From: a virus
DNA: 23,360 nucleotides
Reading direction: 5' to 3' (one strand)
Virus record (IMG/VR): IMGVR_UViG_3300022602_001688
Coordinates: 1-23,360 of that record
Position numbers and translations under genes: made by a program
Notes under the pieces: generated by a model
Seen by the model: the letters and a program-made list of their open reading frames with translations, nothing else
Database searches by the model: none
What the model was told of the DNA's origin: nothing
Shown: positions 1,802 through 18,975 of the stretch, in pieces
How positions within the stretch are numbered: the stretch's first letter is position 1
How the letters are laid out: each line of letters opens with the position of its first letter

Positions 1802-2051
1802 TTGATACCTTTTTCTTTTCTTCCCAATACTTGATCATACGATTAACATCTTCCATACGTTCTTGTACAATCTCGGGAGCCGCACGTTCTAACATTTTTA
1901 AATTGTGATAACTAGGATAATGCCGCAAACACCACCGTGCTCGCTCACGTAGTTCTTTTGGAATACGTGGAGTTTTTTGAGGATTCATTAAATCTGTTAA
2001 GAATTCTTCTGTACGTTGTATACTTCTAAATCGTTCATCAGGTAATGTCAT
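1791..2051 (-). CDS. BPSL0761-like small protein
   Basis: An 86-residue charged, helical protein. The order of segments, MTLPDERFRSI, then a helix with EEFLTDLM, then PRIPKELRERARWCLRHYPS, matches what I remember of the small BPSL0761 family found in proteobacteria and some phages. Its function is unknown. The ATG at 2051 is preferred over the in-frame GTG at 2057 because a GAGG ribosome-binding site lies 9 bases before the ATG but only 3 before the GTG. The 5' end overlaps the 3' end of the transglycosylase-like gene and the 3' end overlaps the oxidoreductase gene, so it is translated within the same operon. No signal peptide or membrane segment is visible. Confidence 0.7.
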   Translation of the reverse strand: MTLPDERFRSIQRTEEFLTDLMNPQKTPRIPKELRERARWCLRHYPSYHNLKMLERAAPEIVQERMEDVNRMIKYWEEKKKVSNEN

Positions 2052-4517: not shown

Positions 4518-4545
4518 ATTATATAGGTTTTTTAGACAATGTCAA
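4518..4545 (-). promoter_or_regulatory. Sigma70-type early promoter for the clamp gene
   Basis: On the minus strand TTGACA (4545-4540), a 16-base spacer and TATAAT (4523-4518) match both sigma70 hexamers perfectly. The -35 box overlaps the stop codon of the nucleotide-sugar dehydrogenase gene. The predicted start of transcription, near 4511, decides the clamp start codon. Perfect hexamers are typical of phage early promoters using unmodified host RNA polymerase. Confidence 0.85.
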
Positions 4546-5321
4546 GGATTTTTCCTAACCTTTTTGTTATACTTTACTGCTGATTCCACCAATGTATGTG
4601 ATACCTGTAGGCTATCTGTGTAATGTATAAAGGCATTTGTATCCTTGGGGAAACAAGCACCACCGAATCCTCTACTGCCATCGGGTCCAGGGACTTGCAT
4701 ATGACTATATCCAATCCTGTCATCCATTTGCAGTAGTTCAATAACTGTATTATATTCAGCACCATTAGCTTGGCAAATGTCATACAGTTGATTAAAGAAT
4801 GCTACTTTGACACTTAGGAAACAATTAGTGGCATATTTTACCATACTTGCTTCTGTGAGTGAACAATGCTCGACATTATTTAGGCTTTTGATTGAACTTC
4901 TGAATAAATCTTCCCATATACAGTTAGGATCAAATCCTCCAATTACCATATATGTTTGATTAGCAAAGTCTTCATTTGCAGATACTGCACGTAAAAACTC
5001 TGGACTATAGCAAATCATATGATCGGGATAATTTATTAATAGTCTATTTAGGTAGTCTGGACGAACCGTACATTTAATTAACACTGGTACAGACGCAGGT
5101 ACAGTATCCATTACACTATAAATTTGACTAACATCGCAATCGCCTAATTCGGTACTAGGCGTACCAACACAAATAATGACGCCTTCTGCATATTTGAAAT
5201 CAGACACAATATTATCATTTATTTTTGGGTCTACTATATGCAGTACAACATTATCTTTTATTGCGTTGGCAACTGCTTTACCGACAAAGCCGTACCCTGC
5301 AATTACTATTTCTTTTTTCAT
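4542..5321 (-). CDS. Short UDP-glucose/GDP-mannose dehydrogenase-like protein
   Basis: A 259-residue member of the nucleotide-sugar 6-dehydrogenase family, which oxidises a sugar nucleotide to its uronic acid with two NAD+. Seen: Rossmann motif IAGYGFVGKA near residue 8, ICVGTPS, YSPEFLRA, the central-helix KYATNCFLSVKVAFFNQ, and the catalytic-cysteine motif GFGGACFPKDTNAF near the C-terminus. Typical family members have 380-450 residues. Here the NAD domain and central helix are present, but the C-terminal nucleotide-sugar-binding domain is missing altogether. The ATG at 5321 starts 1 base after the polymerase stop; a longer in-frame form from 5393 would run back inside the polymerase gene and adds no family sequence. 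It may be a reduced phage form with another substrate or a domain-loss variant. Confidence 0.83.
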   Translation of the reverse strand: MKKEIVIAGYGFVGKAVANAIKDNVVLHIVDPKINDNIVSDFKYAEGVIICVGTPSTELGDCDVSQIYSVMDTVPASVPVLIKCTVRPDYLNRLLINYPDHMICYSPEFLRAVSANEDFANQTYMVIGGFDPNCIWEDLFRSSIKSLNNVEHCSLTEASMVKYATNCFLSVKVAFFNQLYDICQANGAEYNTVIELLQMDDRIGYSHMQVPGPDGSRGFGGACFPKDTNAFIHYTDSLQVSHTLVESAVKYNKKVRKNP

Positions 5322-5322
5322 A

Positions 5323-7989
5323 TTAAAACTCGAATAAACTATTAAAAGTATTTTTTTCTTCTGTGCTACCAACATCCCAATTGAGAACTCCAATCAAGTT
5401 GTCTAGCTTGTTATCGATGATGGTTTGTTCCATCTCAGCGTGATCAAATGGTAAATCTTTGAACCACTGCGGTAACCTCAGTTCGTCTACTGGATACGCG
5501 ACTGATGTAAAACCTAACGGATTAGGTTTGAGTTTACATACAATAACCTTAGCACCGTCTGTAATACCCATAGAATATTTGTCATCGAACATGCGTTTTA
5601 ATGTATTCCAATTAATACTAGCACGAACGTGACCAGGCATATTTGCCTTACCTTGTTTAGCTTCTTTGCCTTGATACTCGGTAATCTTGTTAGCACGTTT
5701 TGGACTACCTTTTTCCCAACCTGGACGAGCTTTAAATCTGATGCGGAATTCGCTAATGTGATCTAAAACTTCTTGTTCAGGCTTACCCATTAGTACCATC
5801 TCAAGAATTTCACTTAAAAAGTCTTGAATAAATTCTGGAGTATCACTACGCTTCAAGTCTAGACCCATGGCCTTGATCTTACCTGGCTTGCCATCTACAT
5901 CAGTACGCTTGCCTTCTTTATCATAATAAAGAACAGCATAACGTTTCTTAGTAATAAACAAGCTCTTACTACCAACAATTTCACGGCCTGCACGAATAAC
6001 TTCTCCACGTGACTTTGGACAATGGAATGTATCCAACATAAACTGTGGAAAGGTAGTGTTTACTTCCTCACCGATTTGGTCGTACAATCCAATTACTGTT
6101 TCTCTAGTCCATGGAAGTTGTCCAGAATCGATTTCTTTTTGCAATGTCTTGTAAGCACTAAAATAACAACTATCTGTATCTCCATAGATAATTGCCTTAC
6201 CGCGATAGTCGTATTCGCCTGTGACAATCTCGTTTACTTTACCAGCCATATGTCGAACAATTTGCCGACCTGTGAGTGTAGTACTTTGCCCAATACGCTT
6301 GTCAAAGAATCTACAACCACTATTAAGAATAGCACCATAAAGCGAATTAAGATTAATCTTCTTAACTAACTGACGTTTGTCCCAGTATTCTTCTTCTACT
6401 TTATTGCCTGCTTGAATACATTCTTTTAATTTGGCCTGCATCTCTTTACGTTCAGCATACCAACGCTTTAGCAATCCAGGAATAATACCTTCTTTTTCAT
6501 AAGTGAAAATTGTACCATTTGCGCTAATGACCCAAGGCTGATTGCTTTCAAAAATAAGTCTATATACTTCGGCGGCACTTAACACATCGCTCGATCCATC
6601 TTCCCAATCGATAGTAATTTCAGTGCCAATCTCTTGATCCATAACTGCTGTGTATTCTAAACTGCCAAATATACCTTCCCATGCCGCCGCAAATGATTTG
6701 CCTTTTGCCATTTGTAGTTCGATATATTCTTCGGTCATTGTTTGACGTAGTTGTCCGATAATAGTTTCAGGACCCATGTTCAACGCACGAATAGCACTTG
6801 GATAAAGACTGTTAATATCTAATGAACCAATCCAGTCATGTATACCTTCTTTAGGCACCGCAACATACGCACCTGCGGCCGCACTATCTTCACGCTCACT
6901 CATCTTAACACGATTAGGAACTTGAAACCCTCTGCGGTGTGCTTCGTTAATAATCGCCTGTTCAGTTACAGCCACCGCACCCATTGTGGTTTGTAGCAAT
7001 ACTGTATTTTCATGTGCCAGTGTATTGGCAAGATCCATGAACTTTAATTTCTTATCTAAATCGTCAAGTAGTTTACAGTCGTTAATGTTATATTCAACGA
7101 ATGTTTTAAAGTCATTGTTGTATAACTGGTCCAGTGTGCCTTCGTACTGTGTCTTACGCTTGCCTAATTCGTACTCAGCAATAGCGTCTAATCGATAACT
7201 GTGACGTTCTTCATATGTATATTTGCGGTACAGCTCGAGATAGTCTAAGTGTACACGACCAATGTAATCGTAAGTTGTACTAAGACGACCATACTTTTCG
7301 TATTCACGCTTTTTAGGCAATTGATTAAACAAACAAAAACGTCTTGTATCGTCTTTGCTCAATACCTTTGTAACACGATTAGTAGTATATGGAACGTCGA
7401 AGCCTTCTGAGTTCCAACCACTGATAACATCTGCATCTTTAATCAAGTCGAGGAATGTATCTAATAAATCCGCTTCGTTGTCAAACAGCATAGTATTAGG
7501 AAATTCTTTTATCATTTCCTTAGCATCTTCCATCTTAAGTTTCTTAGGAGGAATAGCCAAACATACCATTGTTTCTAACCATTGTAGGTAGACAGCAATC
7601 GCAGTAATTGGCATGAATGCATCGTCTGGACTAGCATAGCCACGCTCTGGATCAAAGTCTACCTCAATATCGAAAAATGCTACATTTAATTTAGGAGCAT
7701 CTTGATTTAAATAATGTTCGCTTAGTGTTACAAAGATTGGATTAATGTCAGCTTCGTACATTTCCTTGCCACTATTAATGGCTTGTTCTTTGCGTAATTC
7801 TTTTGTGTTTTTACAAACGATACGAGTGAGTTGCTCACCGTAAATTGAAGTAAATTTCCCTCTTGGGTCTTTTACATAAAATGTATGACGTACAGGAATA
7901 TCTCTAAATTCTCTCTCGCCTTTCTTATTGCGTTCAACCACTTTAACGATGTCGTTCTCGCGGTCAAACCATGCGTCTACATAGCTCAT
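5323..7989 (-). CDS. 43: Family B DNA polymerase, gp43-like
   Basis: An 888-residue replicative DNA polymerase with 3'-5' proofreading exonuclease, close in length to T4 gp43 (898). All motifs are in order: ExoI FFDIEVD near residue 106, ExoII SGWNSEGFDVPY near 190, ExoIII YNINDCKLLDD near 297, PolA SLDINSLYPSAI near 390, PolB KINLNSLYGAI near 548, and PolC IIYGDTDSCYF near 600 with the two catalytic aspartates. The extreme C-terminus, NSLFEF, resembles the clamp-binding tail of RB69 gp43 (SLFDMFDF), and the clamp is encoded two genes downstream. A GGAG ribosome-binding site lies 7 bases before the ATG, directly behind a small hairpin that may be an autoregulatory site. It is probably transcribed from the dsbA promoter at 8353-8381. 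No split, intein or frameshift is seen. Confidence 0.97.
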   Translation of the reverse strand: MSYVDAWFDRENDIVKVVERNKKGEREFRDIPVRHTFYVKDPRGKFTSIYGEQLTRIVCKNTKELRKEQAINSGKEMYEADINPIFVTLSEHYLNQDAPKLNVAFFDIEVDFDPERGYASPDDAFMPITAIAVYLQWLETMVCLAIPPKKLKMEDAKEMIKEFPNTMLFDNEADLLDTFLDLIKDADVISGWNSEGFDVPYTTNRVTKVLSKDDTRRFCLFNQLPKKREYEKYGRLSTTYDYIGRVHLDYLELYRKYTYEERHSYRLDAIAEYELGKRKTQYEGTLDQLYNNDFKTFVEYNINDCKLLDDLDKKLKFMDLANTLAHENTVLLQTTMGAVAVTEQAIINEAHRRGFQVPNRVKMSEREDSAAAGAYVAVPKEGIHDWIGSLDINSLYPSAIRALNMGPETIIGQLRQTMTEEYIELQMAKGKSFAAAWEGIFGSLEYTAVMDQEIGTEITIDWEDGSSDVLSAAEVYRLIFESNQPWVISANGTIFTYEKEGIIPGLLKRWYAERKEMQAKLKECIQAGNKVEEEYWDKRQLVKKINLNSLYGAILNSGCRFFDKRIGQSTTLTGRQIVRHMAGKVNEIVTGEYDYRGKAIIYGDTDSCYFSAYKTLQKEIDSGQLPWTRETVIGLYDQIGEEVNTTFPQFMLDTFHCPKSRGEVIRAGREIVGSKSLFITKKRYAVLYYDKEGKRTDVDGKPGKIKAMGLDLKRSDTPEFIQDFLSEILEMVLMGKPEQEVLDHISEFRIRFKARPGWEKGSPKRANKITEYQGKEAKQGKANMPGHVRASINWNTLKRMFDDKYSMGITDGAKVIVCKLKPNPLGFTSVAYPVDELRLPQWFKDLPFDHAEMEQTIIDNKLDNLIGVLNWDVGSTEEKNTFNSLFEF

Positions 7990-8070: not shown

Positions 8071-8328
8071 TTAGATACGTTTAGTGATATCTAAAATTGC
8101 TTCAATTTCTTCCCAATCTTCATTATGGCTAGCCCAATCGCCTTTATGTGCGATTTTGATTGCCTTATTGATAACGCTTGGTTTAACTTGTAATTCTTCT
8201 GCAACTGCTTTAACAGTTTCTTTTAAGCCTTCTGATAAGTCTTCAATTTCACGTAGTACTGTGCTACCTTCTGAAATTAAACGCTCTAGTTTTGCCTTTT
8301 CTTCTGCACCGTATGACCGACCGCCCAT
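8071..8328 (-). CDS. dsbA: DsbA-like double-stranded DNA-binding protein
   Basis: An 85-residue acidic, helical protein resembling T4 DsbA (89 residues), a small dsDNA-binding protein associated with late transcription. Seen: an N-terminal coiled segment (EEKAKLERLISEGSTVL), a helix pair with KAVAEELQVKPSVINKAIKIAHKG, and an acidic C-terminal helix EDWEEIEAILDI, in the same order as T4 DsbA (RAKDELGV..., LYHKDN, EVVELYDTVF). It is unrelated to the disulfide oxidoreductase of the same name. AGGAG lies 7 bases before the ATG. It is the first gene after the promoter at 8353-8381 and is followed, 81 bases on, by the DNA polymerase gene. Confidence 0.72.
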   Translation of the reverse strand: MGGRSYGAEEKAKLERLISEGSTVLREIEDLSEGLKETVKAVAEELQVKPSVINKAIKIAHKGDWASHNEDWEEIEAILDITKRI

Positions 8329-8427: not shown

Positions 8428-10752
8428 TTAACCGCGAGCGATTTTAAGCCAACGAGATAACTCGTCATCGACTGATTCTGCCTTTACTGCTGGGTTTGAT
8501 GCGGCGCCTGCTCCACCACCGTTTTTATAAACAGTTGGTTGCGATGTAACATCTTTGGTTATGTTAGCAATACTACCTGGAACGTCTGCTGGTAATCCAG
8601 ATGCTAGAGGAGGTTTCATTCCACCGCCGCCTACATCAGCTGGAGCCGCAGGATGATCTTTTTGGAACGTATCGATAGCTGTTTGTGCATCTTGCAATGC
8701 TCTCGATATACCAGCGTCACCGCCTTCTGTTGCATCTGGGACATCTGCTAATGTTCCCATTACTTGTTTAATTTGGTCAATTAATGCTTGTTGTTCCGGT
8801 GTCGGAGGAGTAGTAGTTGGTGTAGTTGGTGTAGTCGGTGTTCCACCACTTCCACCACTTCCACCACTTCCACCACTTCCACCATGACCACCTGTAACAG
8901 TTGCAGGAGCACCTCCTGAACCATTACCACCTAATGCTAACCCTGCACCTGCACCTAATGCTGTTGCACCTAATGCGGCTTTAACTGGATTACGTCCAAT
9001 TGCGGCACCTGTTTTAAGAGCACCTTTTTGTACAGCAGATAGATCCTTGCCAGTATTTGCTAATCTTGTTGCGGCCGCAGGAGCATTACTAGCACGAGCG
9101 GCAGTTTTAACTGCACCGCCTGCACCTTTCAATGCATCCCAACCTGCGCTAAGACCTTTACCAATACCTTGCAACCAATTTGCTTCGTTAAGTAATAAAC
9201 TACCTTCTTCAGCACTTTCATTAATAGCGGCAATCGTCATTAAGTCTGTAACATAATCGCCATTTTCATCATAGATGAAACAGCTTTCGTCTAAGAAATA
9301 TTCTTTAGCCAAACTTTCTTTAATTACAGATTTAGCTTCAATCAATTCTAAACGTGCTTGCATATCGCGAATACTTTCTGCAACTGATTGTTTTGCTGAT
9401 TCTGCAATTCCTGCTTTACCATAAGTCTCTGGACCAGGCATACCGTCAGCGGCAATACCTTGTGATTGTTGCCATGCTTTTAGTTTAGCTGATGTTTCAG
9501 GTCCCATTTTTCCATCCGGATTAGCACCGATAACTTTTTGTAGTTGAGCTAGTTTAGCATCAGTTCCGCCTGCTGGATGTCCACCACTACTACCACCTGC
9601 TGGAGCATTTTTATCTGGAGCACCACCAAATGCGCTACCAGTAGCTTTGTAGTCACGTGCCATATTAGCGGCATCTAATCCCATTGAAGCGGCCGCAGTT
9701 AACGGTCCACCCAAACTCAATACAGCACTTAAACCTGCCATGCCAGCACCTAAGTAGTCACCTTTCTTAGCACGGTCGATGGCATCTGCTGTACCAACAA
9801 CTAAACCAATACCTGGAATAATCTTAGATAACATTTTGCCGCCGCCTTTTGCAAGTAACATTTTACCTGCTTCTGGAGCAACTGCTTTAATATTCTTTGC
9901 GGCTAGGTTTGTAGCAATTTCTTTTTCAGCGGCTGGTAAAGTACCAAGTCCTGCGGTTTGTTTTGCAATACCATTTCCCGATTTTAATCTTGCTTTTAAT
10001 GCGGCTTGTGCATCGTTAGTTGCATTGCCAGCACCTGTTTTTACCATACCATTCATGGTATTTTGTAATTCACCACTAGCGGCACGACCTCTTTCTAATG
10101 CCGAATCTGCACGACTTTGTGCAAGTTTGTTTCCTACCTCACCAAAATCGCCAGGAGCTGATGCTTTAGGTGCACCTGGTAAATCTGCAAATGCGGCATT
10201 TGGATTATCTGGCGACATTGTGTTAGCAAGTTCGTCTAATTGATAACCAAAACTTTCTGCTAATTGTCGTGCAAATTCAAAACTTTCTTTAGTAGCGGCA
10301 GGTGTTGCCGGAGCTGCCGCTGAAGATGCTTTAAGTTGGTCTAATAGCTTATAAAGTTTTTGTAAGTTTGCTTGATTAACTTGTTGGCTAGTTCTGTCAG
10401 CATTAACTTTGCCACTTTGTGCTCTTAATTGCTTGTCATAACTAGAACCTGAAGTACCAAATATTCTACCTAGTAATGTTGATGTGTGAGCATTGCTAGG
10501 AATTAACCCCATATCAGATAATTTAAAGTCTGTGTTCTTATCTGCGGTGGAAGAAATTTGACCGTTTGCTCCGACAAAAGAACCAGATACTGGATCATAC
10601 AAACCGCCTAGTTGATTTTTAGTTGCCAACGCGGCCAATGCAGACGCACGTTCTTGATCAGTGCTCATGCCTTGTACAGCGGCCTGCACATCTTGCATTG
10701 TCAAACCTTCTGACAACGCATCTAATTTAGATAGTACGTCTCTAATGTTCAT
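8428..10752 (-). CDS. Large modular virion-associated protein with peptidoglycan-binding domain
   Basis: A 774-residue low-complexity, Ala/Gly-rich protein. In order: a short amphipathic start, MNIRDVLSKLDALSE, ending in an L-S-E prohead-protease-like site; helical and Ala/Gln-rich regions; a hydrophobic glycine-zipper-like stretch near 297-361 (IIPGIGLVVGTADAI, AGLSAVLSLGGPLTAAASMG); a PG_binding_1-like domain near 399-445 (NPDGKMGPETSAKLKAWQ); a second Gly/Ala-rich hydrophobic segment near 589-609; a GGS and TPT repeat linker; and a conserved-looking tail ESVDDELSRWLKIARG. No lytic catalytic domain is seen. The features fit a protein carried in the virion and passed through the cell envelope at infection, but that is inference. 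The ATG overlaps the stop of the upstream gene as ATGA; a hairpin terminator follows. Confidence 0.72.
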   Translation of the reverse strand: MNIRDVLSKLDALSEGLTMQDVQAAVQGMSTDQERASALAALATKNQLGGLYDPVSGSFVGANGQISSTADKNTDFKLSDMGLIPSNAHTSTLLGRIFGTSGSSYDKQLRAQSGKVNADRTSQQVNQANLQKLYKLLDQLKASSAAAPATPAATKESFEFARQLAESFGYQLDELANTMSPDNPNAAFADLPGAPKASAPGDFGEVGNKLAQSRADSALERGRAASGELQNTMNGMVKTGAGNATNDAQAALKARLKSGNGIAKQTAGLGTLPAAEKEIATNLAAKNIKAVAPEAGKMLLAKGGGKMLSKIIPGIGLVVGTADAIDRAKKGDYLGAGMAGLSAVLSLGGPLTAAASMGLDAANMARDYKATGSAFGGAPDKNAPAGGSSGGHPAGGTDAKLAQLQKVIGANPDGKMGPETSAKLKAWQQSQGIAADGMPGPETYGKAGIAESAKQSVAESIRDMQARLELIEAKSVIKESLAKEYFLDESCFIYDENGDYVTDLMTIAAINESAEEGSLLLNEANWLQGIGKGLSAGWDALKGAGGAVKTAARASNAPAAATRLANTGKDLSAVQKGALKTGAAIGRNPVKAALGATALGAGAGLALGGNGSGGAPATVTGGHGGSGGSGGSGGSGGTPTTPTTPTTTPPTPEQQALIDQIKQVMGTLADVPDATEGGDAGISRALQDAQTAIDTFQKDHPAAPADVGGGGMKPPLASGLPADVPGSIANITKDVTSQPTVYKNGGGAGAASNPAVKAESVDDELSRWLKIARG
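8841..8884 (-). repeat. 9-bp tandem repeat coding for a GGS linker
   Basis: About five copies of a 9-bp unit (TTCCACCAC on the plus strand) are nearly identical at the DNA level and encode repeated Gly-Gly-Ser. It is followed by a TPT-repeat stretch. Such a tract can change length by slippage without breaking frame. Confidence 0.85.
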
Positions 10753-11570
10753 TTTACATTCCTTTTATTCTTTCTAATCATTTCATTAATATGTTTAATG
10801 GAGCTCGTATTCTTTTTGGATTCAGCGACTTGCTCGTGATGTTTAACACAATATTTTAATTCATCTAAAGCATCTTCGTAGGAATCGTAGCCACTGTTGT
10901 CTATACCAGATGCATAGTGCTTCATATACCATTCACCGCCACCGGGACTTGCTTCAGGGTCTATACCAATTTCACCGACTGGCTTGCCATGCTTTTTAAT
11001 AACTTTTTTAACTTGATCGGAACCTTGTTCGCTCATACCTAAATCAAAATGTCCACCGGTACTAGGAGTTACTTCTGGACCAGGACCTGCACCGCGACCA
11101 TCGAACCCAAGACTTTCATCAAGATCTTTTTGGTTCCATTTATCGTTATACCTGTGATGGGATATTTTAAGCTCGGACTCTAATTCTTTCAATGCTTTAG
11201 CTTGAGCAGTTTTTTCGATCTTACTTTTTTTAGATTCTTTAATCAAAACACGTTCAGCAATAATGCTAGCATATTGATTAATTAATTGACGTTTAGATGT
11301 TTGTTGTTCAGCAAACTCTTGCTCAACATCATTTAAGTACTTGTCGATTAAACGTGCTTTACGTTCAACGGGAACAGGTTCTTCTTTTTGATAGTGTTGC
11401 ATTGCCATTTGAACTGGCAATGACACTTTATGCGGATTACTTGCTTCTGTTAGTATTTGTATACTAGCATTTTTATCTACGATAGCTAAAAATTTAGACA
11501 TATCAGAAGCACCTGCTACAGGCTTTGTAGCAACGCCATCCATCGCCTGTAGTATGCGCTTTATGTCCAT
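10749..11570 (-). CDS. Candidate internal head/structural protein, unknown function
   Basis: A 273-residue highly charged protein without recognised enzymatic motifs. It starts MDIKRILQAMDGVA, an amphipathic leader like its neighbours, and carries an L-T-E protease-like site at residues 40-42. A Lys/Glu-rich helical middle section (residues ~90-140, likely coiled) is followed by a Gly-rich stretch GFDGRGAGPGPEVTPSTGG. The more ordered C-terminal half contains KPVGEIGIDPEASPGGGEWY and SYEDALDELKYCVKHHEQVAES, which looks like a small globular domain with a conserved Trp/Tyr. It lies 4 bases after the metal-site-rich gene and overlaps the next gene as ATGA. Its role in the virion is inferred from context only. 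Confidence 0.75.
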   Translation of the reverse strand: MDIKRILQAMDGVATKPVAGASDMSKFLAIVDKNASIQILTEASNPHKVSLPVQMAMQHYQKEEPVPVERKARLIDKYLNDVEQEFAEQQTSKRQLINQYASIIAERVLIKESKKSKIEKTAQAKALKELESELKISHHRYNDKWNQKDLDESLGFDGRGAGPGPEVTPSTGGHFDLGMSEQGSDQVKKVIKKHGKPVGEIGIDPEASPGGGEWYMKHYASGIDNSGYDSYEDALDELKYCVKHHEQVAESKKNTSSIKHINEMIRKNKRNVK

Positions 11571-11574
11571 TGGA

Positions 11575-13320
11575 TTATCCCAATAGGCGTTTTGTCAATG
11601 CACGGATTTGATCAACCTCACGGTTCTCAACTAATGCTGGCTTTTCTGTACGATTCAAACGTCCAGTTAACTGAACTAAACGATCTACTTCAGAAGACTC
11701 TTTAACAGTTTCTTTCTTATCCATAGCTTTTTTAATTGCTTTGTCTACTGAACCGGCATGTTCGTCTTTACCGCTTTCAACTTTTCCATCACCGTCGTAA
11801 TCTTTCTTAGCAAGTTCAGCTTTTTTCTCAGCCATGTATGCTGTAGTTTCTTTGATATTTTTCCACATAGCGGCAGCGGCAATCTTTTCGCCTTTCTCAC
11901 CACCACCAGCTTTCTTAGCTAACTTGTCGAAGCCTTTACCCGGCTTACCAATGTCTCCACCTGCCTTAGCTTTTTTAACTGTAGCAGACTTCTTAGCTTT
12001 GCTTAGACCTGCGCTTGGCTTTTTGCCTTCTGCCATCGGAGTTGCGATTGCATTTGGATCGCATTCATACATAGTGCCTTGATTTAGATGTGGATGTTGA
12101 TGATATGTTTCACCCATTGCACCGTGCATAATGCTTCCACCGCATGACTCACATGCGTCTTTATGGTGCATAGCTAATTCAAGATTACCTGCTTTGTGGT
12201 GCTTTGCATATTCACAAGCATGGTGATGAGCCATATGCCCTGCTGGCATTTTGCTTTCTTTAACACTCTTCTTGTCGGCAATAGCTTTTTTCATTGACTC
12301 TTTCTTGTTGCCGTCTTTGTCCATATCTAAGAAATCTGGTTTCTTTTTCTTAGCTTCGTATACACCTTGGCCGTACACTTCTTTTACAGGCTCTTCTTTT
12401 CTGTTATCAAATTTCTCGCCATTCTTCTTACCCCAAGTTGGAGTATTGTGTTTTGGTAGCTTGATATCATTGCCACGTTCTGCTTTCTTTGTCTCAGCAT
12501 CTTTAGCTTTAGCATGAGTTTTGATACCCTTGCCTGATTTTTGATCAGCTTCGCCGTCGTCAGCATAGCTAGTGTTTTTATGTACAACACCTGTGTTAGT
12601 CTTAGTTAACTCACCTGTACGAGTCTTCTTAGTATCGCCGACTTTCATTTCGCCTTTACCTTTTGAAGAGAATGCATTTTCAACTTCTTCGTCTACTTCT
12701 GTTTCTGGACTATCTTGTCCGTCCATACGCTTGTGAGCAGCCTTAGTAGCTTTAACTAGACGTTTATATTTTTCAACCTTAGCAAGTGCTTTAGGATGAG
12801 GAGTCATTCCAGGCATATGAACTACGCCAGTTCCGCCACATTCTCCGCATGGTTGTTCGCCACCATTCAATGGGCCTTCCATCATTTTAACTTTTTCAGC
12901 ATCGGCTTTCTTAAGAGCTTTAACTTTAGATTTAGCCTCCATTAGCCAGTTCTTAAGAATACGTTTCTTGCTTTCGCTTAATGCTGGGGAATTCATTTGC
13001 TCGCCATACTCGCCGATTTTCTTTTCATAAGCTAGATAGTGATAAACACTGGCAATGTTAGTAGCGGCAATAGTAATTTTACTTTGTACCCATGCTTCTA
13101 ACTCTTCATCATCTTGGATGTGTTCTTGTAAGTTAGTTGCATAGTTAGCTAATTTAATTAGCTCTTGTTTGGCCATTGCGCCTTCTTGGTCACCGTGTGG
13201 GCCTTCTGCACCTGGGTCTGCACCCATATCTGCGTCCATTCCTGGTTCTGCACCTGCGTCCATTCCTGGTTCTGCACCTGCGTCCATTCCTGGGTCTAAG
13301 TTATCTAATTCTGGTGGCAT
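11575..13320 (-). CDS. Lysine-rich protein with Cys/His and EF-hand-like motifs
   Basis: A 581-residue, Lys/Glu-rich, mostly disordered-looking protein. In order: an N-terminal PGMDAGAE repeat; helical segment ~45-120; a CGECGGTG motif like one DnaJ zinc-finger repeat; a long basic low-complexity region; an acidic DMDKDG loop; a His/Cys-rich patch with HHHACEYAKHH and HHKDACESCGG; a second D-rich loop, DYDGDGKVESGKDE, resembling an EF-hand; and two C-terminal copies of a short helix, EVDRLVQLTGRLN and EVDQIRALTKRLLG. It may bind zinc and calcium, but this is inferred from motif shape only. No catalytic domain is recognised. GGAG precedes the ATG at 13320, and a GATAAATA late-promoter-like octamer lies 25 bases upstream. 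Its position in the head-protein cluster suggests a virion protein. Confidence 0.75.
   Translation of the reverse strand: MPPELDNLDPGMDAGAEPGMDAGAEPGMDADMGADPGAEGPHGDQEGAMAKQELIKLANYATNLQEHIQDDEELEAWVQSKITIAATNIASVYHYLAYEKKIGEYGEQMNSPALSESKKRILKNWLMEAKSKVKALKKADAEKVKMMEGPLNGGEQPCGECGGTGVVHMPGMTPHPKALAKVEKYKRLVKATKAAHKRMDGQDSPETEVDEEVENAFSSKGKGEMKVGDTKKTRTGELTKTNTGVVHKNTSYADDGEADQKSGKGIKTHAKAKDAETKKAERGNDIKLPKHNTPTWGKKNGEKFDNRKEEPVKEVYGQGVYEAKKKKPDFLDMDKDGNKKESMKKAIADKKSVKESKMPAGHMAHHHACEYAKHHKAGNLELAMHHKDACESCGGSIMHGAMGETYHQHPHLNQGTMYECDPNAIATPMAEGKKPSAGLSKAKKSATVKKAKAGGDIGKPGKGFDKLAKKAGGGEKGEKIAAAAMWKNIKETTAYMAEKKAELAKKDYDGDGKVESGKDEHAGSVDKAIKKAMDKKETVKESSEVDRLVQLTGRLNRTEKPALVENREVDQIRALTKRLLG
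13231..13293 (-). repeat. 24-bp tandem repeat (2.6 copies) coding PGMDAGAE
   Basis: Two identical 24-bp units (13231-13254, 13255-13278) and a 15-base partial third copy encode the repeated octapeptide PGMDAGAE near the N-terminus of the 581-residue protein. The identity at DNA level points to recent slippage or duplication. Confidence 0.9.
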
Positions 13321-13344
13321 GAGTATACTCCGTTTATCTTTATA

Positions 13345-13352
13345 TATTTATC
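13345..13352 (-). promoter_or_regulatory. Candidate T4-type late promoter element
   Basis: The minus strand reads GATAAATA, one base off the T4 late consensus TATAAATA, 25 bases before the start of the 581-residue protein gene and overlapping the stop of the gene before it. The same octamer recurs at 18341-18348 before another candidate head-protein gene. Confidence 0.5.
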
Positions 13353-13890
13353 TTTTGATGCTTCCGCCGGTTATCAAATTTGCCTTGATATCTAGGGCAT
13401 TTTTAGCTGTACCGTCTTTGTTTTTAGGTGTTTTCGGGTGCTTTTTATTTTTATAAACCGGGCCAACTCCGACATTGCCTGCACTTGTAGCGCCTGCACT
13501 AGCTGATTCCGCTACACCATGTTTAGCATCTAACCCATAATTTGGATTGTGTCTTCGCTGACCTAATACTTGATGTATTGCTTGAAATTTACTGTTATAT
13601 GGATATTGTTGTCCATTTGCCATTCTATCTTCTGGACTATTTCTAAATTTTTCTGCTAGGTCGTGAAGTTCTTCATTTGACAGATGTGAAAAAGGTTTAA
13701 GCCACTCTTCATATCTTCTTACATTTGCTTCACCTTCTTTTTTTCCTAAGGTGACGCCGTGTTGGTAACCTTTTTCATAATGATCTGATGAAGGGCCATA
13801 TATAGAACTGGCACGTGGATTTCGATGACCTCGTTTGCCATCATTTACGCCATCTTCGTAAGGGCCTTCTAATAATTCTTTCATTTTCAT
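13348..13890 (-). CDS. Candidate internal head protein, unknown function
   Basis: A 180-residue basic, polar protein. It starts MKMKELLEG: a short basic leader and an L-L-E site expected for gp21-type prohead protease cleavage. A tyrosine/glycine-rich region follows (YEDGVNDGKRG, HYEKGYQHGVTLGKKEGE), then a helical segment with LSNEELHDLAEKF, then AESASAGATSAGNVGVGPVY and a Lys-rich C-terminus ending ANLITGGSIKR. I do not recognise a catalytic motif. The paired YxxGxxxG phrases suggest a small repeated unit. The ATG overlaps the upstream stop as ATGA, so it belongs to the same translated chain as the small paralog genes. Confidence 0.75.
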   Translation of the reverse strand: MKMKELLEGPYEDGVNDGKRGHRNPRASSIYGPSSDHYEKGYQHGVTLGKKEGEANVRRYEEWLKPFSHLSNEELHDLAEKFRNSPEDRMANGQQYPYNSKFQAIHQVLGQRRHNPNYGLDAKHGVAESASAGATSAGNVGVGPVYKNKKHPKTPKNKDGTAKNALDIKANLITGGSIKR

Positions 13891-14117
13891 TTTTTAATTC
13901 CTCTGAATCCTTTTCCTACGGCAAGCTCACCGCCCATAAATTTAGGCAAACTAAACCACAACTTGAACCAATCTTCAGTGCCAGGCTGTATGTTTTGCTC
14001 ACGCATAATCTTTGCTTTCTCTGTACCAGTTATACTGATATTACTTCCGCCGTAAGGTTGCAGACCTTTAAACTCGTTAATACCTGCTAACTTCTTAAGA
14101 CGTTCTAGTTCATCCAT
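13887..14117 (-). CDS. Small conserved phage protein with LWF motif
   Basis: A 76-residue protein: an N-terminal helix MDELERLKKLAGINE ending in an I-N-E prohead-protease-like site, a middle segment with ISITGTEKAKIMREQNIQPG, and a compact TEDWFKLWFSLPKFMGG motif. From memory, similar small proteins with a PGxxxWFxLWF motif occur in T4-like marine phages; their function is unknown. The start shares TAATG with the stop of the upstream gene and the stop shares ATGA with the next gene. Confidence 0.72.
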   Translation of the reverse strand: MDELERLKKLAGINEFKGLQPYGGSNISITGTEKAKIMREQNIQPGTEDWFKLWFSLPKFMGGELAVGKGFRGIKK

Positions 14118-14527
14118 TATACACCGTACTTATTCTTTTTAGGTTTTGCAACAGGACTAAATTTGTTAGTTCCTTCCGGTTCTTCACTACGGTTGTTGCT
14201 TAACTTTTTACCTTTGTAACCTAAGTCTTTTTTACTCTTATCGATAATATCTTGTTCTGCATCAGTAAATGCATACAATGACATTTGATTAGCACTTGGA
14301 CTTTGTGCATCCATGCCTTGTTCACCCGGACTACCCGCCATGTGTACACCAAATCGATACATGTTATAATACCAGCTTGGTAGTTCAGGCAACGTATTCC
14401 AGCCTTTAATAGCGGCTGTGTGATTTGGATGCACTTTGCCTTTAGAGCCGTGATTGATTTCACTGTTACCGCCGTAAGCATCCATACCGCCTTCGCTATC
14501 TTCAGATAAGAATTCTCTTGCTCTCAT
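14117..14527 (-). CDS. Small paralog family member A (SPVAKPKxNKYG tail)
   Basis: A 136-residue protein, first of three related sequences. The N-terminus MRAREFLSE matches the layout of the T4 internal protein leader (MKTYQEFIAE), with an L-S-E protease site after nine residues. The core has YYNMYRFGVHMAGSPGEQGMD and YAFTDAEQDIIDKSKKDLG; the C-terminus ends FSPVAKPKKNKYGV. The two shared ends and the core pattern Y..YRFG...AGSP / (F/Y)(S/T)D....II recur in the genes at 14527-14901 and in the second half of 14901-16073. The function is unknown. Adjacent genes are joined by one-base TAATG overlaps. It is likely a packaged head protein, by inference. Confidence 0.78.
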   Translation of the reverse strand: MRAREFLSEDSEGGMDAYGGNSEINHGSKGKVHPNHTAAIKGWNTLPELPSWYYNMYRFGVHMAGSPGEQGMDAQSPSANQMSLYAFTDAEQDIIDKSKKDLGYKGKKLSNNRSEEPEGTNKFSPVAKPKKNKYGV

Positions 14528-14569
14528 TATATACCGTACTTGTTTTTTTTAGGTTTAGCTACTGGACTA
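14519..14569 (-). repeat. Direct repeat copy 1 at paralog junction
   Basis: 51 bases matching 14893-14943 at 49 positions. It spans the start of one paralog and the 3' end of the preceding one (stop codon plus the KPKKNKYG-coding tail). A more diverged third copy lies around 14115-14159. It marks recent tandem duplication of this gene. Confidence 0.88.
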
Positions 14570-14901
14570 GTTTTCTGTGTATCTTCAGGTTCTTTACTTT
14601 TATGAAAAGCAACTCTGTCATGGTACTCAGTAGGTATAGATTTTTTAACTTGTTTAAACATATTATGTTCTACTTCGGTATACGGGTGTTGTGTCCAGTA
14701 AGGACCCATCCAGCTCTCATGATCTATGTCTAATTTATTGTTACTACCATCTGACATAGCTAATGCTAGCCCTGTACGTAATTGGTGGTAGTTAGGATAG
14801 TAACCGCCAGGATCTCTAGCAACAGCCGCACTGGTATGAACACTTGCATGATGCTCATGATGCTTACCGGTTCTTTCGACAATAAATTCTTTTGCTCTCA
14901 T
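14527..14901 (-). CDS. Small paralog family member B (SPVAKPKxNKYG tail)
   Basis: A 124-residue protein, second of the tandem family. It begins MRAKEFIVE, with an I-V-E protease-like site at residues 7-9, continues through a His-rich stretch (GKHHEHHASVH), a core NYHQLRTGLALAMSDGSN aligned with the YRFG...AGSP core of its relatives, and YTEVEHNMFKQVKKSI aligned with their (F/Y)(S/T)D helix. It ends TSPVAKPKKNKYGI. The core has drifted more than the two ends, so the leader and tail appear to be the constrained parts. The start and stop overlap the neighbours as TAATG. Confidence 0.78.
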   Translation of the reverse strand: MRAKEFIVERTGKHHEHHASVHTSAAVARDPGGYYPNYHQLRTGLALAMSDGSNNKLDIDHESWMGPYWTQHPYTEVEHNMFKQVKKSIPTEYHDRVAFHKSKEPEDTQKTSPVAKPKKNKYGI

Positions 14902-14943
14902 TATATACCGTACTTGTTCGTTTTAGGTTTAGCTACTGGACTA
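14893..14943 (-). repeat. Direct repeat copy 2 at paralog junction
   Basis: Partner of 14519-14569 (49 of 51 bases identical). It spans the start of paralog B and the 3' end of the nucleotidyltransferase-fusion gene. Confidence 0.88.
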
Positions 14944-16073
14944 ACTGTATTAGTGCCTTTAATTTCACCACTCTTGTCTGCTAGCTTAGTCATTTTACCT
15001 AAGCCTAAATGATCGCCAGCGGCTTTGATAATTTCTAAATCTTCATCACTAAATGGTGCCAATAATGGATCTCCTGAAAACGCTCCACCTGCACGTTGAT
15101 GTACTGGCATGTGTTCTGAAGGATCTGGATGACTGCCTGCTAATGCTATACCAAAACGATACTGCAAATAGCTACTACCGTTTGATTTGTTCATGCTAAT
15201 TGCTGGAAAGCTAACAGCATGATTTAGTCCTGCTAAATGTTCGTCTGATAAGTCGTCACTATCACCTTGCCCTGCATATGGCGCATCTGGAGTGCCGGCA
15301 GTCATACTAGCTTTTTCATTTAATTGACGACGAATAAATTCTTGTGCTCGCATTTCTCTTATTACCTTATTAGCATATTTAACCGATTCTGCCGCAGGGT
15401 TCATAGTCTTTGCTGGCTGTTTTTTAACAGCAGGTTTTTTACCCCAAGTAGGATCTGATAAACGTTGTTGTGCTTTGTGCATTAGAGCAAGCACTTCTTC
15501 ATCGCTAAGTTCAGGATTCATTGCATCACGCCATGCTTGGAATTTTTCATCTTCGCTAGCATTAGGATCTTTAAGTATGTCACGCATTGGAGTAGCACGT
15601 GGACCTTCTTCACCGGCACTTGGGTCGTTAGTTTCTTGACGAGCAATAACTCGAAGACTGTTAAGCCCAAACTGTTTATACGGTTCAACGCCGCTCTTAT
15701 CTGGACGTACTAGATATTGGAATGCGTTCTTTTGATCAGCACCTACAATAAGCGTGACATCTGTATATCCGTGTTCTGCTAATCGTGTTAGTACTTTGTT
15801 TAAATCCGGCATTTCGTCAGTAGCAGTATGGAAAATGTGTCCATGCTTTGGAAATACTTTTTTGTATATTGCTAATTTTTCTTCAGGAGTAACTGGATCA
15901 TCTTTACCTACAGTACGACTAACCACAAAATAAGGATCTGCACCTTCTTCACGTGCTTGTGTAATAACGCTACTAGCTAAAAACATGTGTCCTTTGTGAC
16001 CCATGCCACGACCCCAACCGACTACTGCGGTTTTACCTTGTCCTGTGCGATTAAGAAATTCACGTAGTAACAT
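14901..16073 (-). CDS. HxGH nucleotidyltransferase fused to paralog family domain
   Basis: A 390-residue two-part protein. Residues 1-~180 form a cytidylyltransferase/adenylyltransferase-like domain: leader MLLREFLNRTG, then VVGWGRGMGHKGHMFLAS with the HxGH nucleotide-binding motif at 26-29, TPEEKLAIYKKVFP, GADQKNAF, and PRATPMRD standing for the family's S-T-x-x-R motif. It would transfer NMP from an NTP to an unknown acceptor. A Lys/Pro-rich linker leads to residue 241, where MRAQEFIRRQLNE starts a complete copy of the small paralog family (core YLQYRFGIALAGSHPD, tail VSPVAKPKTNKYGI). The second part may also be translated alone from the ATG at 15353. The start at 16073 is set by the TAATG overlap with the upstream stop and an AAGGA site; a longer in-frame form from 16094 reads back into the neighbour's coding region. 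Confidence 0.8.
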   Translation of the reverse strand: MLLREFLNRTGQGKTAVVGWGRGMGHKGHMFLASSVITQAREEGADPYFVVSRTVGKDDPVTPEEKLAIYKKVFPKHGHIFHTATDEMPDLNKVLTRLAEHGYTDVTLIVGADQKNAFQYLVRPDKSGVEPYKQFGLNSLRVIARQETNDPSAGEEGPRATPMRDILKDPNASEDEKFQAWRDAMNPELSDEEVLALMHKAQQRLSDPTWGKKPAVKKQPAKTMNPAAESVKYANKVIREMRAQEFIRRQLNEKASMTAGTPDAPYAGQGDSDDLSDEHLAGLNHAVSFPAISMNKSNGSSYLQYRFGIALAGSHPDPSEHMPVHQRAGGAFSGDPLLAPFSDEDLEIIKAAGDHLGLGKMTKLADKSGEIKGTNTVSPVAKPKTNKYGI

Positions 16074-17920
16074 TAGTCTTTCCTTGGAGCCCAATTTGCT
16101 TGGTCAATAGTTTTAACAAACTGTCCAGGTAAATCGTGTTTGAATTTTCCACCAGGATGTGCTTGCACATATCCTTCTGGTTTTGTTTGTCTAATGCCGC
16201 CGTGTGTGCCTGCACTTAATGAATTAATTACTTTCATCTTTTCATGAGTTAATAATTCAACAGCAGTTAATATTGCATCTAATCCAGGATGGCTTAAAAC
16301 TTTTTGTGATTGTGTATTGCTTAATTTAGACTGTGCCCAGTTTGCAAATTGTTGTTTAACACCAGCAACACGCAAGTTTTGATTAAAGAATGAATATAGC
16401 ACATCACCTGGTTTACTTAACCCAGGTTGTCCTGCAATAAAACTATCAATCAATGCTTTATTTTTCTTAATATAGTCTTCGGCATGCTTTAATCCAGCAT
16501 CGTCTACTTTAGGCGGATGTTCAACATAAGTTGTGCCTTGTACAATTACATCTGGAGTTGATAATTTCTCAGCATCTGGATACCGTGTTTCGTCTGCACC
16601 AATGTGTGTATAGTATCCAGTTGCGGCAACCATAACTTTTGCATTGGCAATCTTTTTACCTAGTTCACTATCTTGTGGAATGTGGAAACTAGTAATGTTA
16701 GGTTGGAAATCATATTCGTGTGTGCTAGGATTTAATTGTGCTGGCTTTAATGGACTGAATAAAATACCACCTTCGATGTATCCTGACTTAGGACTAATCT
16801 TTTCAAAGTAAGGCCATAAATCAGCAAGTCCACGAGCAAATGCTTTACGTTGTTCTTCTTGTCCAGGTTGTGTTGTTCCTGTGCCTAGTACAAACATTGC
16901 AACATCATCTGGATCATTCATCATAGTAGTCACACCACTCTTAGTATGTGTTGTACCACGCTTCATGTAATCCCATGCATTTTTAGGATACATGTGGAAC
17001 ACGCCTTGTTCATCACGACCCCAGTATATAACAGGACTGCCGTCCCATTTTAATTCTATACTACCACCTTTGCTAGTCATGTGACGTAGACGTTCAATAG
17101 CATGTAATCCACCAGTGCTACCATTTGTAAACACTAGATCTTCGATGTGTTGATATTTTCTTCCAACTGCGGGAGCCGCCGCTTCGTTAAGAGGTTGCAC
17201 ATGTTGCCAACTTGAACCTGCGCTTGCTTTTTGTAAAACTTCGTTACGTAATGCTTCGTCTGGAATAGAATCTAAAATAGCTTCCACACTTCCTAAATTA
17301 GTAGCATTAGCTTGTGGTCCAAGCAATTTTTTAGCAATAGCATTTAAGTCATTACTGATGAACTGTGATTTCTTACCTTGTTCATCTCTAGCATATAATC
17401 CTTCATCAGGTGACCATAACATTCCTTTGTGAGATGCTAGTGTACTTAGAATAACTTGCTTGTGTACACCTTTGTATGGGCTACCTTGAGGTATTGCATG
17501 ATGGTGGAACTTATGAACTTTCTCTGCATTGGGTACTGCTTTGATATCCACTTGATAAAATTTACCTTTGAAAGGTAACAAGATATGTACAGTTACACCA
17601 GTTCGTTTTGTTTGTAAGCCTGCACTTTGTAAATATTTTTCTAATTCGATACGAGTAGTTTTTCCATCCTTAGTGCCAAATTGTTGCATTAAAGGATTGA
17701 TGTCAATCATAACATCTAGGTCACCACTTATTTTACCGGGAGTTGGCGTTGCCGCACTACCGATTAAATGTACAGGAGTATGTACACCTTTAAGATACTT
17801 TTCTGTTTCACGTGCCATCTCAGCGGCAATTGCTTGATCGAAACCTTCCGATTCCGGCCAAATATTTCCACCTTCAAAGATGGGCTTTCGTACATTGGTA
17901 AACAATTCTCTTAACAGCAT
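16073..17920 (-). CDS. Pol-beta-type nucleotidyltransferase plus DUF6267/ligase-like protein
   Basis: A 615-residue protein with two enzyme-like parts. The leader MLLRELFTNVRKPIFE ends in an I-F-E protease-like site. Residues ~45-130 form a minimal nucleotidyltransferase domain: LIGSAATPTPGKISGDLDVM gives the GS...DxD pattern (Gly54-Ser55, Asp67/Asp69), and FYQVDIKA supplies a third Asp. From ~255 the protein resembles DUF6267-type phage proteins: ELKWDGSPVIYWGRDEQG near 290 has the KxDG core of covalent nucleotidyltransferases (DNA/RNA ligases), YIEGGILFSP lies near 378, and a late PEGYVQAHPGGKFKHDLPGQ looks like ligase motifs IV/V (EGxV...KxK). It could seal or modify nucleic acid, but the substrate is unknown. 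The stop overlaps the next gene as TAATG; the start is 2 bases after the upstream stop. Confidence 0.75.
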   Translation of the reverse strand: MLLRELFTNVRKPIFEGGNIWPESEGFDQAIAAEMARETEKYLKGVHTPVHLIGSAATPTPGKISGDLDVMIDINPLMQQFGTKDGKTTRIELEKYLQSAGLQTKRTGVTVHILLPFKGKFYQVDIKAVPNAEKVHKFHHHAIPQGSPYKGVHKQVILSTLASHKGMLWSPDEGLYARDEQGKKSQFISNDLNAIAKKLLGPQANATNLGSVEAILDSIPDEALRNEVLQKASAGSSWQHVQPLNEAAAPAVGRKYQHIEDLVFTNGSTGGLHAIERLRHMTSKGGSIELKWDGSPVIYWGRDEQGVFHMYPKNAWDYMKRGTTHTKSGVTTMMNDPDDVAMFVLGTGTTQPGQEEQRKAFARGLADLWPYFEKISPKSGYIEGGILFSPLKPAQLNPSTHEYDFQPNITSFHIPQDSELGKKIANAKVMVAATGYYTHIGADETRYPDAEKLSTPDVIVQGTTYVEHPPKVDDAGLKHAEDYIKKNKALIDSFIAGQPGLSKPGDVLYSFFNQNLRVAGVKQQFANWAQSKLSNTQSQKVLSHPGLDAILTAVELLTHEKMKVINSLSAGTHGGIRQTKPEGYVQAHPGGKFKHDLPGQFVKTIDQANWAPRKD

Positions 17921-17922
17921 TA

Positions 17923-18294
17923 TTAGTCCTTGTACTTTCCAATTCTGATATGCTCTTTAAATTCTTCATGTATTTTAGTACATGCTTCTTTAAGAGTGTC
18001 TTCTTCTAGTTCGTCAGGAAGAATGCGGATAGGATATTCTTTTTTGTATTGTTTGTATGCTTCTTTGATGGCTTCAGCAAACATTTTGCTGTGAGTTGGT
18101 TGCTTACCTTTAACAAGGTCGATACATTTTGATAAAGTTGGGTAAACGTTGCGACGATATACGTTGTCGTCATTGTGCATGTAGTGAATTAAGTCATCCA
18201 CTAGGTCGTAGTCTAATTCGGTTTTATCACCGCTTTTTTTAATAAAATCCAACTCCTTAAAGTTGGCATTTTCTAATAATTCTCTTATTCGCAT
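17923..18294 (-). CDS. Small helical phage protein, candidate head-internal
   Basis: A 123-residue charged, all-helical-looking protein. It begins MRIRELLEN, with an L-L-E site at residues 6-8 like its neighbours. Then come LDYDLVDDLIHYMHNDDNVYRRNVYP, a helical middle with HSKMFAEAIKEAYKQYKKEYPIRILPDEL, and a C-terminal helix HEEFKEHIRIGKYKD. From memory, similar DLVDDxxxxMxNDDxxYR proteins occur in T4-like marine phages; no function is known. It is the first gene after the GATAAATA element at 18341-18348 and starts the candidate head-protein operon. Confidence 0.75.
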   Translation of the reverse strand: MRIRELLENANFKELDFIKKSGDKTELDYDLVDDLIHYMHNDDNVYRRNVYPTLSKCIDLVKGKQPTHSKMFAEAIKEAYKQYKKEYPIRILPDELEEDTLKEACTKIHEEFKEHIRIGKYKD

Positions 18295-18366: not shown

Positions 18367-18975
18367 CTATGCTTTGATTATGCGTTCAACCTTAGCTATA
18401 CACCCGCCAAGGTGCATTTTTGCCATGAGTAAGTTGTTATCACCTGTGATATAGAAGTGTGTGCCGCCCCAACTGCGAGGTTTGTTTAAATCCCGTATGC
18501 AACTCTTTGTCATCTTACATTTTGCACTTTTCTCAGCCCATTCTACAAATGGTAGGTTGGGTTGTGTAGTTTTACCCAGCGTAACACGATAATCGTAGTT
18601 CATCTTGGGCATGACAACAGTACCAGCTTCTAAGTTATTAGAAGAGGGTTCGCAAATATATTTTACATTACTTTGATCTATGTTAGCTAAATTATTAACA
18701 AGTTTACGATCATTAGTGTAAATGCTGATCCAGGGACTTTCTACACGAACATCGAATTCTGTTTGTCCTGATAAAGCGTTGGCTACTTTACGTGCGTAGT
18801 CTAAATCGTCCTGTGTTTTGATTGTTCTGAGAGTGTGTTTTCCATTAATAACGACTTTTGTTAGTTTATCTAGCGCATCTTCTATATTCCTAAACACACT
18901 GGCACCGGAACATACCAGTACGATTTTGTACTGGTATTTTCCTCGAAATAAACTTCTAGTAGTCTTAAAGAGCAT
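18367..18975 (-). CDS. Conserved-looking protein of unknown function
   Basis: A 202-residue soluble protein, basic at the N-terminus (MLFKTTRSLFRGKYQYKIVLVCSGASVFRN) with alternating predicted strands and helices. Four cysteines are spaced through it, with a CKMTKSC pair near the C-terminus. The ordered look (KYQYKIVLVC, EFDVRVESPWISIYTNDRKLV, THFYITGDNNLLMAKMHLGG) suggests one folded alpha/beta domain; I do not recognise it. The ATG at 18975 is preferred over the TTG at 18984 because it begins the conserved-looking sequence; either overlaps the end of clpA by 11-20 bases, so translation is probably coupled. Being last in the dnaJ-def-clpA operon, it may be a partner or adaptor of these proteins, but that is speculation. 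Confidence 0.75.
   Translation of the reverse strand: MLFKTTRSLFRGKYQYKIVLVCSGASVFRNIEDALDKLTKVVINGKHTLRTIKTQDDLDYARKVANALSGQTEFDVRVESPWISIYTNDRKLVNNLANIDQSNVKYICEPSSNNLEAGTVVMPKMNYDYRVTLGKTTQPNLPFVEWAEKSAKCKMTKSCIRDLNKPRSWGGTHFYITGDNNLLMAKMHLGGCIAKVERIIKA

What the first reader, a model, noticed from the sequence alone, without database searches (positions are those of the whole stretch)
8428..18294. Ten-gene block of candidate capsid-targeted, protease-trimmed proteins
Many genes here start with a short basic/amphipathic leader closed by (L/I)-x-E: MRAREFLSE, MRAKEFIVE, MKMKELLE, MRIRELLE, MLLREL...PIFE, MDELER...GINE, MNIRD...ALSE. T4 internal proteins begin MKTYQEFIAE and are cut by gp21 after (L/I)-x-E. 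The shared leader on otherwise unrelated proteins, including enzymes, suggests one packaging tag that loads a cargo set into the head for injection.
Basis: partly seen in the sequence, partly recalled or inferred. Interest (0 to 1): 0.78.

Follow-up and report, generated by a model that had tools for sequence, protein, structure and literature searches.

The report
Capsid-loading tags in freshwater jumbo phage
A run of ten linked genes in an uncultured freshwater giant phage mostly carries short, removable front-end tags like those phage T4 uses to load helper proteins into its head, so the particle probably delivers a set of enzymes into the host with its DNA.

Summary
In detail: ten tightly coupled ORFs, eight with a short N-terminal leader. 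The leader is enriched far above shuffled N-termini in the window and in relatives, including a 345-kb one that encodes the T4-type prohead protease gp21. The strongest evidence is protease logic. Among 39 distinct homologues of the DUF6267 gene (window 16073-17920), leaders of varying length all end in L/I-x-E (V once), with x free and E invariant. Gene 13348-13890 repeats the relatives' predicted gp23 cleavage site (LME|SPTAGATSAGNV). In T4 the same pattern retrieves gp24 and Alt, both known gp21 substrates. The cyanophage relative of gene 14901-16073 was detected in purified S-SM1 virions (PMC3037559) and begins MKKFSAFLNE. So these proteins are very probably loaded into the prohead and trimmed; injection is likely but not shown. 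Corrections: three genes or domains are paralogues, one gene has no N-leader, and one leader lacks its site in the window. New details: internal leaders in fused proteins, retained cleavage sites at gene fusions, and a tentative C-terminal tag resembling the scaffold's end. The kind is known (T4 capsid-targeting sequences); the cargo block and its architecture are a new variant.

The parts
17923..18294 (-). p10, 123 aa; leader MRIRELLE (18271-18294)
   Evidence: 38 distinct homologous leaders all M[RL]I.[ED]LLE, E8 invariant
16073..17920 (-). p9, 615 aa: N-terminal Pol-X-type nucleotidyltransferase fold plus DUF6267 (contains KWDG); leader MLLRELFTNVRKPIFE (17873-17920)
   Evidence: Pfam DUF6267 E 1.3e-15; Foldseek to DNA polymerase lambda E 3.4e-6; 39 distinct leaders with L29/I9/V1 at P3 and invariant E
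14901..16073 (-). p8, 390 aa: cytidylyltransferase-type domain (GHKGH motif) with leader MLLREFLN (16050-16073; no L/I-x-E closer in the window)
   Evidence: PHROG cytidyltransferase E 4e-18; start at ATG 16073; cyanophage homologue detected in virions
15315..15353 (-). internal leader MRAQEFIRRQLNE inside p8, at the start of the fused p6/p7-type domain
   Evidence: kept in 23 of 35 distinct p8 proteins, 22 closed by [ILV]xE; P3 hydrophobic in 23/23 variants, P2 variable
14527..14901 (-). p7, 124 aa; leader MRAKEFIVE (14875-14901)
   Evidence: 15 distinct p6/p7-type leaders: P3 L7/I8, P2 of five kinds
14117..14527 (-). p6, 136 aa; leader MRAREFLSE (14501-14527); paralogue of p7 and of the p8 C-terminal domain
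13887..14117 (-). p5, 76 aa; leader MDELERLKKLAGINE (14073-14117), helical type resembling the C-terminal tags
13348..13890 (-). p4, 180 aa; leader MKMKELLE (13867-13890), variable middle, gp23-like cleavage site
13471..13515 (-). VAE|SASAGATSAGNV in p4: copy of the MCP cleavage-site region
   Evidence: GATSAGN-type motif occurs only in gp23 and p4 in each of G001, G002, G003; 17 variants, P3 L/I/V/M in all
11575..13320 (-). p3, 581 aa, no N-leader; two C-terminal tag-like helices (EVDRLVQLTGRLN, EVDQIRALTKRLLG), the second preceded by LVE
10749..11570 (-). p2, 273 aa; weak leader MDIKRILQAMD, ILTE at residue 42
   Evidence: weak PHROG 'internal virion protein' match, E 0.008
8428..10752 (-). 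p1, 774 aa with peptidoglycan-binding domain; leader MNIRDVLSKLDALSE (10708-10752) and C-terminal tag DELSRWLKIARG (8431-8466)
   Evidence: PF01471 E 8e-9; leader and tag conserved in relatives

Best explanation
The block encodes prohead-core cargo of a T4-like jumbo phage. Each N-terminal amphipathic leader (M-x-[IL]-x-E-[LF]-[LI]...) works as a capsid-targeting sequence: it binds the gp22-type scaffold core so the protein is enclosed when the gp23 shell forms. The phage's gp21 protease then cuts after the closing L/I-x-E, frees the cargo from the core and lets the leader leave. The freed proteins stay in the head with the DNA and most likely enter the host at infection. The cargo includes a nucleotidyltransferase/DUF6267 protein, a cytidylyltransferase, a peptidoglycan-binding protein and small proteins. 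Fused cargo keeps gp21-type sites between domains, so it is probably cut into separate products. Shown by sequence: leaders, conserved cleavage logic, gp21 in relatives, gp23-like site in p4. Inferred: targeting, cleavage, ejection, function in the cell.
For: Leader enrichment in window and three relatives. Protease-site pattern: p9, 39 distinct leaders, P3 L29/I9/V1, E invariant, P2 and length variable; p6/p7 15/15 L or I at P3; p4 site 17/17 and p8 internal site 23/23 hydrophobic at P3. p4 carries the gp23 site; in L075/L076/L077 p4 is MKIREL(L/I)E|TA(S/T)AGGTSAGN, so leader end and gp23-type site coincide. Phosso gp23 PLME|TATAGATSAGNVAT and a 65-aa Phosso protein MKAIEILSE..ALFE|HASGGGTGAGSVAT repeat the pairing. 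gp21 in G001-G003. Leader also on the gene between portal and gp21 (g101) and near terminase (g052, g053; g053 weak match to a virion structural family). T4 control: same pattern finds gp24 MAKINELLRE (annotated as cleaved by gp21) and Alt MELITE (ITE-6, PMC5694885). Cultured relatives: Salicola phage SCTP-2, 19 leaders in 12 families vs 0.52 expected; Atu_ph07 10 vs 0.92. S-SM1 virions contain GC190 cytidylyltransferase, whose ORF starts MKKFSAFLNE, directly after a DUF6267-like gene, as in the window.
Against: No proteomics of this lineage. gp21 is not in the 23-kb window itself, only in relatives. p8's own leader lacks the closer in the window. p3 has no N-leader, and a Dps-like gene often found in the block has none. 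GAP32, a T4-like jumbo with gp21, shows no leader enrichment. Regexes were built from the examples, so enrichment figures are partly circular; homologue conservation is the cleaner evidence. Presence in a virion does not prove location in the head or ejection.
Confidence: 0.83

Rival explanations
1. The leaders are gp21-cleaved and the proteins sit in the prohead, but they are structural or scaffold parts of the jumbo head (size determination, core packing) and are not ejected as effectors.
For: Leader on g101 in the gp67 slot, tags on gp22-like scaffold and terminase-flanking proteins; T4 core proteins gp67/gp68 are also gp21 substrates; p4 mimics the gp23 arm.
Against: Several block proteins are enzyme-like (cytidylyltransferase, Pol-X fold NTase, PG-binding) and gene content at the site varies between relatives, which fits cargo better than core structure.
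Confidence: 0.3
2. The leader is only a common N-terminal oligomerisation or membrane-contact helix of late proteins and is never cut.
For: Amphipathic helical pattern; p8's leader in the window has no L/I-x-E; no cleavage data in this clade.
Against: Invariant E with L/I two residues before and a free residue between, at varying distance from the start; fused p9-p8 proteins lose the p8 helix but keep (I/L)QE at the junction; p4's match to the gp23 site.
Confidence: 0.08
3. The similarity of N-termini is by common descent and chance: paralogues plus AT-rich start regions.
For: p6, p7 and the p8 C-terminal domain are paralogues; seven of the SCTP-2 leader genes fall in one family.
Against: p1, p4, p5, p9, p10 show no relation to these; 12 families share the leader in SCTP-2; shuffles reach at most 6 against 19.
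Confidence: 0.04

Closest known systems
T4 capsid-targeting sequences of IPI-III, Alt and gp24, processed by gp21
   Same: Short N-terminal amphipathic leader closed by L/I-x-E, in a phage group with gp21, gp22 and gp23 homologues; T4 gp24 MAKINELLRE is nearly identical in form to MKINELLNE (SCTP-2) and MKIKELLTE (G001).
   Different: A contiguous translationally coupled block, enzyme-like cargo not found in T4, internal leaders in fused proteins, gp23-site mimic (p4), possible C-terminal tag.
Cyanophage GC190 cytidylyltransferase with neighbouring DUF6267 gene (S-SM1, Syn9, S-SM2)
   Same: Same gene pair and order in S-SM1 and Syn9; leader MKKFSAFLNE / MKKFSAFLSE / MKSFFQFLSE; S-SM1 GC190 detected in purified virions (PMC3037559).
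   Different: Leader sequence differs; no fused p6/p7 domain; DUF6267 homologues there mostly lack a leader and the Pol-X domain.
P1 DarB N-terminal packaging signal
   Same: N-terminal signal of at most 30 residues targets a protein to the head (PMC9024508).
   Different: No shared consensus among P1 Dar proteins; a different phage group.
phiKZ/SPN3US ejection-protein propeptides
   Same: Giant-phage head proteins trimmed after x-x-E by a gp21-like protease (PMC5694885).
   Different: Propeptides mostly over 100 residues, A-x-E or S-x-E motif.

Membership tests
T4-type capsid-targeting sequence (CTS) | N-terminal propeptide of about 6-19 residues ending in L/I-x-E | tested here: met
   8 of 10 genes have a leader; p9, p6, p7, p10, p5, p4, p1 close with [LI]xE within 16 residues; p8 does not in the window
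T4-type capsid-targeting sequence (CTS) | Same phage encodes a gp21-family prohead protease | tested here: met
   Peptidase_S77 in the relatives G001, G002, G003 at E 6e-27 to 1.5e-26; the window is a fragment without it
T4-type capsid-targeting sequence (CTS) | Protease specificity in this clade is L/I-x-E | tested here: inconclusive
   Inferred from conserved gp23 LME|S and p4 sites; no biochemical test
T4-type capsid-targeting sequence (CTS) | Leader-bearing proteins are in the virion, with trimmed N-termini | not testable with these tools
   Only indirect: cyanophage GC190 homologue in S-SM1 virions; Atu_ph07 proteome table is in a supplement that could not be read
T4-type capsid-targeting sequence (CTS) | Leader is sufficient to load a foreign protein | not testable with these tools
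   Needs experiment
T4 internal proteins IPI-IPIII (sequence family) | Homology of the mature protein | tested here: not met
   No Pfam or PHROG hit to the IP families for any of the ten proteins
Phage cytidylyltransferase (PHROG 3041, T4-GC190) | Sequence match and nucleotidylyltransferase H-x-G-H motif | tested here: met
   E 4e-18; GHxGH nearly invariant in 22 sequences; the predicted model gave no significant fold match

The most novel reading that the evidence does not exclude
Beyond T4, this jumbo lineage uses a two-ended, modular loading code: N-terminal leaders and scaffold-like C-terminal helices ([DE]-L-x-R-W-L-x-I-A-G), both flanked by gp21 sites, plus internal leaders that turn fused cargo into polyproteins cut inside the prohead, so the injected proteome can be read from sequence.
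Probability: 0.35. Interest if true: 0.8.

Novelty: new variant of a known kind. Interest (0 to 1): 0.62.

Why it matters
If true, packaged and injected proteins of uncultured giant phages can be predicted from N-terminal sequence plus cleavage-site conservation, without isolating the phage. It names concrete candidate cargo enzymes in a freshwater lineage (80 related loci kept from one viral-contig scan), gives predicted mature N-termini, and extends gp21-guided loading from a few T4 proteins to a whole gene block. The internal leaders and the gp23-arm mimic raise testable questions about polyprotein processing inside the prohead.

Tried and rejected
Late-promoter support: no TATAAATA in the window and no clear pattern in G001. 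Structure of p8: model mean pLDDT 67, Foldseek matches not significant (E 0.01 at best, TM below 0.3), so no enzyme class beyond the family match is claimed. Synteny with the cultured phages Phosso and Atu_ph07: the place between ClpA and DNA polymerase holds tail-fibre and other genes there, the block is absent. C-terminal tag shared with the scaffold: strong with a regex built from examples (8 vs 0.12 in G001; N-leader and C-tag co-occur, Fisher p 0.0009), but an unbiased pairwise comparison did not single out gp22 and a simple xAG[LI] test was clear only in G001 and weakly in G004, so it stays tentative. Pfam search of SCTP-2 leader proteins gave no function. Product names in the Atu_ph07 record do not reveal which leader genes were detected by mass spectrometry.

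Full report
What was checked. The window is a 23.4-kb fragment of an uncultured T4-like jumbo phage (G000, a virus record). Its DNA polymerase is closest to Sinorhizobium phage Phosso (49%) and Agrobacterium phage Atu_ph07 (46%). One scan of viral contigs with the 615-aa protein gave 80 related loci, one in a 345,369-bp contig, G001, 82% identical in that protein. G001 was used as the stand-in for the whole genome; it encodes gp21 (Peptidase_S77; PHROG head maturation protease), a gp23 major capsid protein (Pfam E 3e-98) and a terminase, with a gp22-like gene between gp21 and gp23.

Observation. The ten ORFs exist and form a tightly coupled set: five junctions from 17920 to 13890 overlap or nearly overlap stop and start. 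The leader core is enriched over shuffled N-termini in the window (5/25 vs 0.07), G001 (12/423 vs 1.55), G002 (7/162 vs 0.54) and G003 (6/101 vs 0.24), but not in T4, S-PM2, Syn9 or HTVC008M with this exact form. The regex was derived from the examples, so conservation among homologues is the fairer test.

Cleavage logic. In p9 the first seven residues M[LF]LREL(F) and E16 are nearly or fully invariant among 51 distinct homologues while most of residues 8-15 vary. In 39 distinct leaders the residue two before that E is L 29, I 9, V 1 times, the one between is free, and the leader length varies. The same holds for p6/p7 (15/15 L or I), p1 (8/8 I or L), p5 (12/12 I, V or L), p8's internal leader (23/23 hydrophobic) and the p4 site (17/17 hydrophobic). 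This is the T4 gp21 rule, L/I-x-E (PMC9026906).

The gp23 mimic. The string GATSAGN and near variants occurs in only two proteins in each of G001, G002 and G003: gp23, at its predicted site YLME|SPT(A/T)GATSAGNVA, and p4. p4's middle is replaced in different relatives while leader and site stay; in the shortest forms (60 aa, L075-L077) the leader runs straight into the site, MKIRELLE|TASAGGTSAGN. Phosso shows the same pair: gp23 PLME|TATAGATSAGNVAT and a 65-aa protein with ALFE|HASGGGTGAGSVAT.

Fusions. In four loci p9 and p8 are one ORF of 984-999 aa; p8's helix is gone but (I/L)QE|NINRTGEG remains at the joint. p8 itself is a fusion with a p6/p7-type domain, and 23 of 35 distinct p8 proteins keep that domain's leader internally, 22 with a closer. 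This fits cutting by gp21 into separate products (inference).

Independent support from known phages. The same leader pattern in T4 returns four genes, two of them gp24 (MAKINELLRE, annotated as cleaved by gp21) and Alt (MELITE; ITE-6 in PMC5694885). Cultured Salicola phage SCTP-2 has 19 leaders in 12 families vs 0.52 expected, Atu_ph07 10 vs 0.92; GAP32 has none above chance. Cyanophage S-SM1's purified virions contain the GC190 cytidylyltransferase (PMC3037559); its ORF starts MKKFSAFLNE and follows a DUF6267-like gene (GC71), the order seen in the window; Syn9 and S-SM2 homologues start MKKFSAFLSE and MKSFFQFLSE. This is detection of a relative, not of the window's protein.

Cargo. p9: Pol-X-type nucleotidyltransferase fold (DNA polymerase lambda, Foldseek E 3.4e-6) plus DUF6267. 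p8: cytidylyltransferase family. p1: peptidoglycan-binding domain. Leaders elsewhere in G001 sit on a lysozyme-domain protein (g340, MRANEFTIKE, PF18013 E 4e-16) and on a protein with an HELVH motif (g418).

C-terminal tag, tentative. p1, p3, g392, g049, g050, g052 and the gp22-like scaffold end in a similar helix, often preceded by [LV]xE; three proteins carry both tags (Fisher p 0.0009). T4 Alt is also processed at its C-terminus. Unbiased tests were weak.

Verdict. Capsid targeting with gp21 trimming is strongly supported by sequence; virion presence is supported for one relative; injection is inferred. The kind is known; the cargo block and its architecture are a new variant.

Noticed in passing
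L187-L206 (Salicola phage SCTP-2, first 400 kb): 19 genes in 12 families start with MKINDLLKE-type leaders, six of them at 208-214 kb; a cultured phage suited to virion proteomics.
   Followed up: partly
L130-L138 (T4), gene at 18966: A 54-aa T4 ORF starts MKTFKEFIKE, the same form as the internal-protein leaders; its identity was not checked.
   Followed up: no
window 2038-3594: 518-aa protein that looks by eye like a phage tRNA-guanine-transglycosylase-type (DpdA-like) enzyme; no Pfam hit, so DNA modification is only a guess.
   Followed up: no
L071:3758: An ORF that looks like a GIY-YIG endonuclease, without leader, is inserted between p5 and p4 in one relative.
   Followed up: no
G001 g186 (176902-177339) and homologues in many loci, absent from the window: A Dps/ferritin-like 145-aa protein without leader sits inside the block in most relatives.
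   Followed up: no
window 4542-5393: UDP-glucose/GDP-mannose dehydrogenase family gene next to DNA polymerase (Pfam E 5e-24).
   Followed up: no
window 8071-8328: 85-aa protein with a sub-threshold match to T4 DsbA-type late transcription regulators, strongly conserved beside the block.
   Followed up: no
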